In this document: positions 34,758 to 38,588 of the stretch, one piece after another
Position numbering within the stretch: the first letter of the stretch is position 1
How the letters are laid out: every line of letters begins with the position of its first letter
Assembly: GCF_000381045.1 (NCBI RefSeq)
Contig: NZ_KB905734.1
Coordinates: 1-39,996 of the forward strand
DNA length: 39,996 bases
Reading direction: 5' to 3'
Source of the DNA: Thermus scotoductus DSM 8553
GTDB lineage: Bacteria > Deinococcota > Deinococci > Deinococcales > Thermaceae
Translations under genes and position numbers: made by a program
The notes under the pieces: model-generated
Seen by the model: only the letters and a program-made list of their open reading frames with translations
The model's database searches: none
What the model was told of the DNA's origin: nothing

Positions 34758-34899
34758 ATGGAGCGCCCCTTCCTGGAAGCCCAGGGCCTGCACAAGCGCT
34801 TCGGGGCCCTCGAGGCCGTGAAAAAGGTCCACCTTACCCTACGACCTGGCGAGATCCTGGCCTTCCTGGGGAAAAACGGCGCGGGCAAAAGCACCACGG
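34758..34899 (+). pseudogene. ABC transporter ATPase gene, truncated after Walker A by a TnpB element
   Basis: An SD (AGGAGG) and ATG open a normal ABC ATPase: [40 protein letters not shown] with Walker [10 protein letters not shown]. The frame then runs into the end of the TnpB element at about 34899 and stops soon after. Q-loop, signature and Walker B are missing, and nothing resembling them is seen between 36121 and 36470. The exact family is unclear; the segment resembles importer ATPases for sugars or branched-chain amino acids. Almost certainly non-functional. Confidence 0.85.
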
Positions 34900-36030
34900 T
34901 CATCTACCTCGGACTGAAGTCCGAGGCTTGCAGGTGGCACGATAGCCATGCATGGCATCTCGTACCCCCGCGTTCGGCTGGATGACGGCAGCCCGGCTTG
35001 CAATATTGCAAGCCGCGACGTAGTCCGCAGCCCCAGAGTAGCCGCAGACCACACAGCGAAAGAGTGCCTGCGTTGGACGGTTCGCCTTCTCGGTATGTCC
35101 GCAGGCTGGACATTGCCGAGAAGTGTTCGCTGGGTCAACCCAAACCAAAGCTACTCCGCTCCGTTCAGCTTTGTACCGCAGTTTTTGGCCCAGGTCATGG
35201 AACGCCCAGCTATGCAGCGTAGCCCTCTGGGGCTTGCGAAGCCGTACCCGCTCGCGGATGCCCCGGAGGTCTTCCAGGGCGATGCCGCGCCCGGTGCGTT
35301 GAGCCTTGGCTACGATGCGTTTGCTGATGCGGTGGTTGAGGTCGTTGGCAAAGCGTTTCTCTTTGCCCGAGAGCTTTTTCAAAAGACGCTTGGCCGACTT
35401 GGTGCCTTTCTTCTGCAACTTCCTCCTGAGCCTTCGGTAGCGGTGTCTGACCGAGTTGAGGTGCTTGCCCGAGTAGGCCTCCCCGTCCGAATCGGTGGCG
35501 ATGTTGACGATGCCGAGGTCAACCCCGAGAAAGCCGTTTGGGGCCATGGCGGGCGGGTCGTCGTACTCGCACCACAGGTGGACGTACCAGGAGTCCCGCC
35601 CCCTGACCAGAGTCCCGCCCTGGATGCTTTTGGCGGTTCGCAGCAGGTGGCGCTGATACCCGGCGATGCGCATGGGCACCCTCGCCCGCCCATCCACGGT
35701 GGAGAGGCTGACGGTCTCGGTGTCCACGTTGACCGACAAGATGCGCTGGTCGTAGTCCACCGAGGTGGCCTTGAAACCGCCTGCCTTATGACCTTTGCGC
35801 TTGCCCACGCGGGCAATAACTCGCACCGCCAGGTTGGCGCTGAGACCGAAGCGTTCCCGAAGTTCCCGGTAGACCAGTCTTTGCAGGGCGAACTTGTTCC
35901 AAGCGTTCTCCTGACGCGCCACCTGCAAGGCGTAGTTACAAGCGTTGGCAAACTGTTCCACCGTGCGGGAAAGCTTCTCGGCTGTACTCGCATCGGGTAT
36001 CAGCTTGCACTTGACGGACAGGAGGGACAT
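34900..36030 (-). CDS. tnpB: TnpB RNA-guided nuclease (IS605-type)
   Basis: 376 residues, intact. RuvC-I Asp171 in [17 protein letters not shown], RuvC-II Glu253 in [14 protein letters not shown], RuvC-III Asp336 in [10 protein letters not shown]. The zinc ribbon is Cys307/Cys310 (CPAC) and Cys326/Cys329 (CVVC). N-terminal [29 protein letters not shown] is the HTH/WED start. TnpB proteins are omega-RNA-guided dsDNA nucleases. The guide scaffold normally overlaps the gene's 3' end, where a hairpin lies inside the last codons here. All catalytic residues are present, so activity is plausible. Confidence 0.93.
34907..34926. repeat. Right-end hairpin of the tnpB element
   Basis: CCTCGGAC-TGAA-GTCCGAGG, perfect 8-bp stem, located within the last codons of tnpB. 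It would be part of both the element end and the omega-RNA 3' region. Confidence 0.75.
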
Positions 36031-36095
36031 GCCTTGACTGGTTATACCACAAAGTCGTCGGCCATGTACCGGGCTTCGCCCGGCTTCCGCTTCCT

Positions 36096-36115
36096 CCCCG
36101 CATTGAAATGCGGGG
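36096..36115. repeat. Left-end hairpin of the tnpB element
   Basis: CCCCGCAT-TGAA-ATGCGGGG, perfect 8-bp stem with the same loop as the right end but a different stem sequence. It lies 66 bases upstream of tnpB. A further GC-rich hairpin (CCGGGC-TTC-GCCCGG, 36069-36083) lies between it and the gene. Confidence 0.75.
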
Positions 36116-36121
36116 CATCTG

Positions 36122-36457
36122 CGAAAGGGGTTCTGTGACAGTACTCCACGCGGTCCCGGAAAAGGTCAGCGAACCAGGCCTTCTCCCCTACCCTTTACCC
36201 GGAGCAGTAAGGGCACCTACAGGAGGCCCTCGGGCCCTCAAAGGCCATGATCCCGCTTCAGCTGGCAGAGGTAGGGCACCCTTTGGATTTCCCCAGGCAC
36301 CCCGTTCCCTAGCAAACCCCACTTTACTCCACTCACTAGGCCCGATGGCAGCTATTCCGCCACCAGGCATGGGAGTGGGGTCAAGGGCGGAGCCGATCAC
36401 GATCCATGGGCCATGATCGACCGTTACCTAGAGGGCAGTTCTGGTTGGAAAACGGTC
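36122..36457. other. Gene-free stretch between the tnpB element and the Argonaute gene
   Basis: No convincing coding frame on either strand; short open frames here have no recognisable motif. The missing part of the ABC gene is not here. Two similar segments containing AGGGCAC (near 36208 and 36274) and the inverted repeat at 36400-36419 are the only structure I see. It may be debris left by a deletion or insertion. Confidence 0.5.
36400..36419. promoter_or_regulatory. Inverted repeat upstream of the Argonaute promoter
   Basis: CGATC(C)ATGG-G-CCATGATCG: 9 bp paired with a single bulged C, ending 38 bases before the -10. It could be an activator or repressor site. Confidence 0.35.
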
Positions 36458-36463: not shown

Positions 36464-36470
36464 TGCCTTG

Positions 36471-38588
36471 ATGCAGGGAATGCAAGTTCGTCTTAACCGG
36501 TTTATCCTGCGGTCCTTGCAGGAGGAAGAGCTACGGCCAGGCTTTTGGGAGGTGCGCTGGGATCCCCTACCTTCCCGGCAGGAAAACCTGTTCCAGCTTT
36601 TGGGGAAAGCGGCCAACCGGGTGGGCGGTGTCGCCACCCCATGGCAGTCCGGCTTGGTGGCTTGGACCGCACCTAGAATCCAAGAAGGAGAAGTAAGGGG
36701 CCTGTCCCAGGCCTATCGTTTCACCCTCCGCGACGGTGGGGCACTTCTCCTGGACCCCGCTAGGGTCCAAGAGCGCGAGGTCCTCTCCCGTCTGGCCCAG
36801 AAGAAACTGGAGGCGGGACTTAAGCAAGTGTATGGGCAAAGCCGCCGCTACCAAGTGGAGGGAAACCTAATCCTGGGTGGAGAAATCCGTTCGGGAAACG
36901 GCTGGCGCATCCGAAAGGGATCCCGTCTCCGGGCCCGGGTGGACCACACGGGCCAGCTGGTCCTGGAGGTGGAGATCGTGCACCGGATCCTCCCTACCCT
37001 GACCCTGGAGGCCTGGCTGCAGGGGTTTCCCGAGCCCCGGCGGGTCCGTAACACCTACGAGAACCCACCCGGCAGGCGGCAGACCTGGCGCTTTTTGAGG
37101 CTTGAACCCGAACTCAAGCCCAGGGAGGTAGACCTCGGGGGGGTGAGCCTCTTCGACTACCACGCTGGCAAGGGCAGGCTCTCGAGCGAGGAACAAGCGG
37201 GCCGGGTGGTGCGGGTGGCCGACGACAGCGGCGCGGAATTCTTCCACCTTACGGGGCTCCTCGAGCCTGTGCTGACCCTAGAGGACCTGGTCGAACTGGG
37301 CCTCGAGGCCGAGGCTGCCCTTGCCCTCCAGATCGGCCCCGAAGAGCGGTTCTCCCAGGCCCAAAAGACGGCCCGGGGCATTGCCGAAAGGATCTTTGGA
37401 GTACCGCGGGCCGAGCCTGTAGTGGCCCAGGCCTACCTGCTGCCCAAGCCCCAGCTCAAGGCCGGCCGGGGGCAACGGATTGGCAAGCCCGCAGACGCTC
37501 TCCGCAAGGGAGCCCTTAAGGCGCAGGACGCCACGGTGGGCCTCCTTGTGGTGGAGGGGAAGCCCGAGTGGCCCCAAGCCCTGAGGAAGTCCCTTCAGGA
37601 CATGGCCCGGGCCAGCGGGGTTAGGCTCAGGTTGGCGGATCCCATCGCGGTGGCCCGTGGGGACCTGCGCGGCCTGGATTTGGCCAGCTCCCTCGACCAA
37701 CTGGCCCAGCAGGAGGTGGCTGCCCTGCTGGTACAAACCCCACCCCTCACCTGGGAGGAACGCAACCGGCTCAAGCGGGCCTCCCTCCAACGCACCCTTC
37801 CCAGCCAGTTCTTTAACCCGCCCCTGGCCGAGCACAAGCTGGACAACATCCTCCTGGGCCTGGCCAGCAAGCTGGGGTGGCGGATGGTGGGGCTAGAGGG
37901 CGAATACCCGGCCGAGGTAGCGGTGGGGTTTGACGCGGGCGTGGACGGCTCCCGAAGCCTCCGCTACGGCGGGGCAGCCTGTGCGGTGACCGCGGACGGG
38001 GGGCTCCTCTCCTGGATCCTGCCCGAGGCCCAGAGGGGTGAGAGGATCCACGAGGATGTGGTCTGGGGCATGGTTCAGGAGGTCCTGCTCCGCTTCCGAA
38101 GGCTCGCAGGCCGCTGGCCCAGGCATGTGCTCCTCCTGCGGGACGGCAAGACCCAAAGGCAGGAGTTCACCCTGGCCCTCGAGGAGCTGGCCAGGAAGGA
38201 GATCGGCTACGACCTGGTCTCCGTGAGGAAAAGCAGCGGGGGACGTGTCTACCCGGTGGAGGGGGGCAGGCTGAGGGATGGGCTCTACGTACCCCTGCCC
38301 GAGGAGGAGGACAAAGTCTCCTTCCTTCTCCTCACCGCCTACCCGGGTGAGGGCAGGATGAAGGGCACCCCCCGCCCCCTCAAGGTGGTGCACGAGGAAG
38401 GGCCCACGCCCGTGGAGGAGCTGGCCCGGCAGATCTACCACCTCTCGCGCCTCTACCCCCCAAGCGGCTACCGCTTCCCCAGCCTCCCGGCCCCCCTGCA
38501 CCTGGCGGACCGGCTGGTGCGCGAAGTGGGCAGGGTTGGGCTCAGTTCCCTGCACGGCTTGGACCGGGAAAAGCTTTTCTTCGTCTAG
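36471..38588 (+). CDS. ago: Prokaryotic Argonaute, long catalytic type (TtAgo orthologue)
   Basis: 705 residues from ATG 36471, chosen by the -10 position; a TTG one codon upstream is the alternative. The order is N, L1, PAZ, L2, MID, PIWI. It aligns by eye along its whole length with T. thermophilus Argonaute (e.g. LSLLDYHASKGRL versus VSLFDYHAGKGRL; identical LHLADRLV and EKLFFV end). The PIWI tetrad is complete: Asp488 (GFDAG), Glu524 (GERI), Asp558 (LLLRDG), Asp680 (LADR). TtAgo uses 5'-phosphorylated DNA guides to cut DNA, acting against plasmids and in decatenating chromosomes. No helicase, nuclease or TIR/Sir2 partner is adjacent. Confidence 0.97.
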   Translation: MQGMQVRLNRFILRSLQEEELRPGFWEVRWDPLPSRQENLFQLLGKAANRVGGVATPWQSGLVAWTAPRIQEGEVRGLSQAYRFTLRDGGALLLDPARVQEREVLSRLAQKKLEAGLKQVYGQSRRYQVEGNLILGGEIRSGNGWRIRKGSRLRARVDHTGQLVLEVEIVHRILPTLTLEAWLQGFPEPRRVRNTYENPPGRRQTWRFLRLEPELKPREVDLGGVSLFDYHAGKGRLSSEEQAGRVVRVADDSGAEFFHLTGLLEPVLTLEDLVELGLEAEAALALQIGPEERFSQAQKTARGIAERIFGVPRAEPVVAQAYLLPKPQLKAGRGQRIGKPADALRKGALKAQDATVGLLVVEGKPEWPQALRKSLQDMARASGVRLRLADPIAVARGDLRGLDLASSLDQLAQQEVAALLVQTPPLTWEERNRLKRASLQRTLPSQFFNPPLAEHKLDNILLGLASKLGWRMVGLEGEYPAEVAVGFDAGVDGSRSLRYGGAACAVTADGGLLSWILPEAQRGERIHEDVVWGMVQEVLLRFRRLAGRWPRHVLLLRDGKTQRQEFTLALEELARKEIGYDLVSVRKSSGGRVYPVEGGRLRDGLYVPLPEEEDKVSFLLLTAYPGEGRMKGTPRPLKVVHEEGPTPVEELARQIYHLSRLYPPSGYRFPSLPAPLHLADRLVREVGRVGLSSLHGLDREKLFFV

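What the first reader, a model, noticed from the sequence alone, without database searches (positions are those of the whole stretch)
34907..36115. Both ends of the tnpB element carry 8-bp hairpins with an identical TGAA loop and outer AGATG
Right end CCTCGGAC-TGAA-GTCCGAGG and left end CCCCGCAT-TGAA-ATGCGGGG have unrelated stems but the same loop. On the minus strand each is bounded outside by AGATG. This suggests a transposase that reads loop and flank rather than stem sequence. The right hairpin lies inside tnpB codons, so protein and RNA/DNA structure are under joint constraint. With no tnpA here, the ends define which Y1 transposase could move it in trans.
Basis: partly seen in the sequence, partly recalled or inferred. 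Interest (0 to 1): 0.6.

Follow-up and report, generated by a model that had tools for sequence, protein, structure and literature searches.

The report
Ordinary ends of a TnpB transposon
The two matching hairpins are the normal transposase-binding ends of a small jumping element that carries a TnpB nuclease but no transposase, and related elements show that short "guide" letters beside each hairpin, rather than a shared flanking motif, set where the DNA is cut.

Summary
Both hairpins exist at the stated places (34907-34926 and 36096-36115), each with an 8-bp perfect stem and, on the tnpB strand, a TTCA loop; one at each end never arose in 2000 shuffles. Other copies and an intact target gene fix the element at 34899-36134 plus the retained target TCAC (36135-36138). 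It is a solo-tnpB member of the IS200/IS605 family, inserted in an ABC-ATPase gene of a Thermus-like genome. The hairpins are the usual subterminal IPL/IPR. The tetranucleotide 5' of each hairpin obeys the published IS608 guide/cleavage-site pairing rule: GATG for TCAC at the left end, CAAG for TGAC at the right end. The letters covary across related ends. The shared AGATG is coincidental: at the left end it holds the guide, at the right end it is spacer plus the start of the cleavage site, and relatives break it. In 94 Thermus right ends the loop is mostly TTTA/TTCA while stems covary, as known for IS608-type and REP transposases; but two identical mobile relatives lack the TTCA loop at the left end. 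Intact IS200-type tnpA genes exist elsewhere in the genome. New member of a known kind.

The parts
34899..36134 (-). whole element (solo-tnpB IS200/IS605 type), LE at the high coordinate, RE at the low coordinate
   Evidence: common block shared with copy C53:5623-6862 and with the LE fragment at C6:40097-40191; target gene intact in 11 relatives
36135..36138 (-). TCAC, left cleavage/target site (CL), retained flank, predicted TAM of TnpB
   Evidence: minus strand reads TCAC|AGAACC; intact ABC gene of relatives has GTGA (+) at this point
36116..36119 (-).
   Evidence: tetranucleotide at 5' foot of LE hairpin; obeys IS608 guide rule for TCAC
36096..36115 (-). left hairpin IPL, CCCCGCAT-TTCA-ATGCGGGG
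36084..36127 (-). outer 7-bp stem (36121-36127 with 36084-36090) enclosing IPL, leaving the guide in a 5x5 internal loop
   Evidence: DNA fold z -3.8; same fold in most LE relatives
34900..36030 (-). tnpB, 376 aa, RuvC D/E/D motifs and zinc finger present
   Evidence: NCBIfam guided_TnpB 194.8 bits over cut-off 100; Pfam OrfB_IS605 and Cas12f1-like_TNB; PDB alignment
34927..34930 (-). CAAG, right guide (GR)
   Evidence: 5' foot of RE hairpin; obeys guide rule for TGAC
34907..34926 (-). right hairpin IPR, CCTCGGAC-TTCA-GTCCGAGG, inside the tnpB frame
34899..34902 (-). TGAC, right cleavage site (CR), includes the tnpB stop codon TGA
   Evidence: end of identity between copies; rule test
34899..35074 (-). 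candidate omega/reRNA scaffold (3' end of tnpB plus RE)
   Evidence: RNA fold z -5.9 for 34883-35050; 15 of 47 consensus pairs with changes on both sides in 4 relatives; transcript not shown
34883..34898 (-). predicted 16-nt guide of the omega RNA, CGTGGTGCTTTTGCCC, from the interrupted ABC gene
   Evidence: sequence directly 3' of RE; guide length by analogy to ISDra2 reRNA (PMC8612924)
34758..34898 (+). 5' part of the interrupted ABC-transporter ATPase gene
   Evidence: Walker A GKSTTV reads on into C6:40188 onward; intact in 11 Thermus relatives

Best explanation
The region is a non-autonomous, solo-tnpB element of the IS200/IS605 family. On its tnpB strand it has the standard ends: TCAC | 19 nt ending in guide GATG, hairpin IPL, tnpB, guide CAAG, hairpin IPR, TAGA-TGAC |. 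A Y1 (HUH) TnpA acting in trans binds the two hairpins as single strands, probably contacting the first T of the TTCA loop. The guide at the foot of each hairpin pairs with its own cleavage tetranucleotide, so the element is cut and joined as a single-stranded circle and re-inserted 3' of TCAC. The stem sequence is free as long as it pairs. TnpB with an RNA made from the right end would cut the empty TCAC site and so restore the element. Shown: anatomy, boundaries, target, guide/cleavage covariation, intact tnpA genes elsewhere. Inferred: binding by that TnpA, loop contact, omega RNA and TnpB cutting.
For: Boundaries from a second copy and an LE fragment and from the intact ABC gene in 11 relatives, which gives insertion 3' of TCAC with no duplication. 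The guide rule of IS608 (CL TTAC/GL AAAG, CR TCAA/GR GAAT; PMC5934647) predicts all ten tested LE sites and all but one RE site (the exception needs a G.T pair), with covariation TTAC/AATG or AACG, TTAG/AATC, TCAC/GATG or GAAG, TGAC/CAAG, TCAG/GAAC or GAGC, TTAC/AAAG; 12 of 14 distinct RE contexts fit against 4.3 with permuted guides (0 of 5000 as good) and 0.9 with random guides (one of the two misses is a hairpin read on the wrong strand). 94 Thermus right ends: 749 of 752 stem cells pair, first loop base always T, last A in 92. Two intact IS200-type TnpA genes in the genome with HVH and Tyr; the element on C3 has a right hairpin 20/20 identical to the window's. Two identical 1304-bp relatives at different sites in another genus show mobility of the type.
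Against: No transposition was observed. Stem identity with the C3 element is weak evidence for which TnpA acts, since right-end stems are drawn from few sequences. Copy C53 has a broken closing pair and a G.T pair in its right hairpin, so a perfect stem is not strictly kept. The interior identity of the two copies may be an assembly artefact. The rule test was on related elements, and part of the LE set was found with a pattern containing TCAC and GATG, so it is independent evidence only for the elements found by other routes (G021, C24, C37, C3, C34, window).
Confidence: 0.9

Rival explanations
1. The transposase reads a fixed TTCA loop plus a shared AGATG flank at both ends.
For: Both occur at both ends of the window copy; loop T and A are nearly invariant in 94 right ends; loop contacts are published for IS608, ISDra2 and a REP transposase (PMC8266576).
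Against: AGATG has different roles at the two ends and is GGATG at LE and TAGTTGAC at RE in close relatives; two identical mobile copies in G027 have no TTCA loop at LE; M. hypogaeus keeps CAAG/TGAC but not the RE loop; RE loops include TGAA, TAGA, TCTA, TAAA, TTAA, TTGA, TTCG.
Confidence: 0.07
2. The right hairpin is kept mainly as part of the TnpB omega RNA (or as a terminator) and only secondarily as a transposase site.
For: It lies at the 3' end of a strongly structured, covarying RNA candidate.
Against: The same hairpin form recurs at the left end, which is not in an omega RNA, and beside tnpA genes; ends-only copies of 65 to 358 bp without tnpB exist at several sites.
Confidence: 0.1
3. 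Two direct copies flank the Argonaute region and moved together as a composite unit into the ABC gene.
For: In the assembly the ABC gene is split between 34898 and C6:40188, with a full copy at one side, Argonaute and a BtuF-like gene between, and an LE fragment at the other side.
Against: A 100-N gap and other insertion sequences lie between; contig C53 ends exactly at the LE; the two RE flanks and two LE flanks can be paired as two ordinary single insertions. Assembly of near-identical repeats cannot decide.
Confidence: 0.12

Closest known systems
IS608 (Helicobacter pylori), IS200/IS605 family
   Same: subterminal hairpins, guide 5' of each hairpin foot, cleavage tetranucleotide at each end, insertion 3' of a tetranucleotide without duplication (PMC5934647)
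   Different: target TCAC instead of TTAC, unrelated stems at the two ends, 8-bp perfect stems, no tnpA in the element
ISDra2 (Deinococcus radiodurans)
   Same: TnpB nuclease with reRNA made from tnpB 3' end plus RE, target site doubling as TAM (PMC8612924)
   Different: TTGAT target; has its own tnpA; activity of the window TnpB untested
Halanaerobium hydrogeniformans IS605 elements
   Same: LE and RE hairpins of unrelated stem sequence but shared loop motif, proposed as TnpA recognition signal; most copies depend on TnpA in trans (PMC7290912)
   Different: loop motif AAGCT in longer loops rather than TTCA
Marinomonas REP/TnpAREP (REPtron Mb)
   Same: 4-nt loop TT-N-A is selected by the transposase (PMC8266576), the same loop consensus as here
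   Different: domesticated REP system with GTAG foot, not an insertion sequence
Thermus/Meiothermus-group IS605 elements found here (C3, C34, G021, G027)
   Same: same hairpin form and guide rule
   Different: other guides and cleavage sites (TTAG, TTAC, TCAG, TCAC); some carry tnpA; some have an apical hairpin instead of the loop

Membership tests
IS200/IS605 family, solo-tnpB (IS1341-type) group | TnpB protein with RuvC motifs and zinc finger | tested here: met
IS200/IS605 family, solo-tnpB (IS1341-type) group | subterminal hairpins at both ends on the same strand | tested here: met
IS200/IS605 family, solo-tnpB (IS1341-type) group | insertion 3' of a fixed short target, no target duplication | tested here: met
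   TCAC; intact site in 11 relatives
IS200/IS605 family, solo-tnpB (IS1341-type) group | guide tetranucleotide 5' of each hairpin pairs with its cleavage site | tested here: met
   rule from PMC5934647
IS200/IS605 family, autonomous IS605 | own tnpA in the element | tested here: not met
   no Y1 tnpA in the element; tnpA only at C3, C37 and a fragment at C24
IS200/IS605 family, solo-tnpB (IS1341-type) group | single-strand excision and integration by TnpA | not testable with these tools
   needs biochemistry
OMEGA (TnpB-omegaRNA) systems | structured RNA from tnpB 3' end and RE, ending in a flank-derived guide | tested here: inconclusive
   structured and covarying; no Rfam family; no transcript data
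OMEGA (TnpB-omegaRNA) systems | RNA-guided cutting next to a TAM equal to the target site | not testable with these tools
   prediction: TAM TCAC, target CGTGGTGCTTTTGCCC
Composite transposon carrying Argonaute | two directly flanking copies move as one unit | tested here: inconclusive
   assembly ambiguity

The most novel reading that the evidence does not exclude
Two direct copies of a TnpB-only IS605 element bracket a long prokaryotic Argonaute gene and its neighbours and carried them as one single-strand composite unit into a chromosomal ABC-transporter gene, with TnpB guarding the insertion site.
Probability: 0.12. Interest if true: 0.65.

Novelty: new member of a known kind. Interest (0 to 1): 0.3.

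Why it matters
It places the element in a well-understood mechanism and shows, from natural covariation in one bacterial family, that the IS608 guide/cleavage pairing rule holds for several other target sites, so targets and TAMs of thermophilic TnpB elements can be predicted from four letters beside each hairpin. It gives a thermophilic TnpB with a predicted TAM (TCAC) and guide that can be tested directly.

Tried and rejected
Rfam scan found no family (one sub-threshold Acido-Lenti-1 match on the RE hairpin, opposite strand, 22 against 37 bits). AGATG as a shared signal was tested against relatives and rejected. The first MAFFT alignment of omega-RNA candidates used wrong coordinates for G027 and was discarded; it was redone. 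The search for an empty second site joining the C53 flank to the Argonaute flank in 27 Thermus genomes found nothing informative. Argonaute neighbours in seven other Thermus genomes carry no substantial match to the flanks here.

Full report
Observation. The two hairpins are real and exact: CCTCGGAC-TGAA-GTCCGAGG at 34907-34926 and CCCCGCAT-TGAA-ATGCGGGG at 36096-36115 on the + strand. The gene between them is tnpB on the minus strand, 34900-36030, so I read the element on the minus strand, where both loops are TTCA. The 40-kb window has six hairpins of this form; shuffles of the element give 0.025 on average and never one at each end in 2000 trials.

Boundaries and target. The genome is 2.07 Mb in 84 contigs; its Argonaute and gene content place it in Thermus or very near it (my inference). 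It has a second copy at C53:5623-6862 and a 95-bp left-end piece at C6:40097-40191. Common sequence stops at 34899 and 36138. The right end abuts an ABC-ATPase gene at its Walker A motif, and the rest of this gene follows the left-end piece at C6:40188. Eleven relatives of the same genus have the gene intact with ACG|GTGA at this point. So the element goes in 3' of TCAC (minus strand) with no duplication, as IS200/IS605 elements do.

What the hairpins are. In IS608 the cleavage sites are not read by protein but pair with a guide tetranucleotide just 5' of each hairpin (PMC5934647; PMC6006769). From the two IS608 guide/site pairs and the contact of T-4 with A+17 described there, I derived the rule: guide letter 1 pairs with site letter 2, guide letter 2 with site letter 1, letter 4 with letter 4. 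In the window copy the left guide is GATG and the left site TCAC; the right guide is CAAG and the right site TGAC. Both fit. Over the ends collected, ten left ends and all right ends but one fit, the exception (A. silvanus) needing a G.T pair, and the letters covary: TTAC with AATG or AACG, TTAG with AATC (three elements), TCAC with GATG or GAAG, TGAC with CAAG, TCAG with GAAC or GAGC, TTAC with AAAG. Twelve of 14 distinct right-end contexts fit against a mean of 4.3 with permuted guides and 0.9 with random guides; one of the two misses is a palindrome read on the wrong strand.

AGATG. At the left end AGATG is the guide plus one base, in an internal loop between IPL and an outer stem that most relatives share. 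At the right end the same letters are spacer plus the start of TGAC. The relatives in G027 and M. hypogaeus have TAGTTGAC at the right end, and G027 has GGATG at the left end. The match of the two ends is a coincidence of this copy.

Loop and stem. A pattern that fixed only GAAG, 20 free bases and AGTCGTCAC found 94 right ends in 15 of 27 same-genus genomes, none with the reversed control pattern. All are 8-bp hairpins: 716 Watson-Crick, 33 G.T and 3 mismatched cells out of 752, with 14 different 5' arms. Loops: TTTA 57, TTCA 24, TGAA 6, TTCG 2, and one each of TCTA, TTGA, TAGA, TTAA, TAAA. The first T is invariant, the last A nearly so, the middle is biased but not fixed. Published work shows loop contact in this class: IS608 T10, ISDra2 T14, and selection of TT-N-A in the Marinomonas REP transposase (PMC8266576). 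A Halanaerobium study had proposed loop recognition from the same kind of observation (PMC7290912). Against a strict need for the loop at the left end: in a sister genus (G027) two identical 1304-bp relatives, 88% identical to the window element, sit at different sites with the left loop replaced by an apical hairpin; M. hypogaeus has lost the right loop while keeping guide and site. Copy C53 has two differences from the window copy, both in the right hairpin, one breaking the closing pair. Identity of the interior may reflect one shared assembly path, so this bias should not be over-read.

Coding overlap. In the window the tnpB frame runs through the right hairpin and its stop TGA is part of TGAC; M. 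hypogaeus appears to do the same and A. silvanus stops in the loop. G027 stops about 20 codons earlier, and the C34-type elements stop 4 bases before the hairpin. The C-terminal tail is therefore not a conserved protein feature. Overlap of the tnpB 3' end and the right-end RNA is normal: ISDra2 reRNA matches the tnpB 3' end and RE (PMC8612924). The corresponding RNA here folds with z -5.9, and four relatives share a consensus fold with 15 of 47 pairs changed on both sides in at least one sequence; the region is also coding, so the covariation is suggestive rather than proof. Expression is not shown.

Transposase. The genome has two intact IS200-type TnpA genes (C37, C3) and one at a contig end (C24). 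The C3 element has the identical 20-nt right hairpin. Because guides lie in the DNA, its different target (TTAG) does not exclude its TnpA from moving the window element. Ends-only copies of 65, 67, 180 and 358 bp in other genera of the family suggest that such ends without genes spread in trans.

Argonaute. A long Argonaute gene (36468-38588) lies beside the element. In the assembly it sits between the two halves of the ABC gene, bracketed by element ends. The two right-end flanks and two left-end flanks can, however, be paired as two simple insertions; a 100-N gap and other insertion sequences intervene, and no relative resolves it. I leave it open.

Verdict. A well-anchored new member of a known kind.

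Noticed in passing
window 36468-38588 and C6:34899-40191: Long prokaryotic Argonaute gene next to the element; in the assembly it lies between the two halves of an ABC-ATPase gene, bracketed by element ends in direct orientation, with a 100-N gap.
   Followed up: partly
L054 1821-1856 (G001:C13:7320-7355): A solitary 36-nt palindrome GTCATCTACCTCGGAC-TTCA-GTCCGAGGTAGATGAC at the 3' end of a pilus-like gene: the window's right end with its foot on both sides, like a double-foot REP.
   Followed up: no
G002, G007, G008, G013, G022 right ends; L106: Loops reading TGAA instead of TTCA on the tnpB strand, i.e. the loop inverted within the same stem, suggesting recombination between palindrome arms.
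   Followed up: no
L109, L114, L119, L117, L121: Ends-only (MITE-like) derivatives of 358, 358, 65, 67 and 180 bp with TCAC left and TCAG right ends in G048, G040 and G030.
   Followed up: partly
G000, many contig ends: 36 copies of another IS605 right end (hairpin plus AGTCGTCAC) in this genome, many at contig ends, so the assembly is broken at these elements.
   Followed up: no
window 34994-35015: Perfect 11-bp palindrome CGGCTTGCAATATTGCAAGCCG in tnpB; same stem with different letters in relatives, a core stem of the candidate omega RNA.
   Followed up: yes
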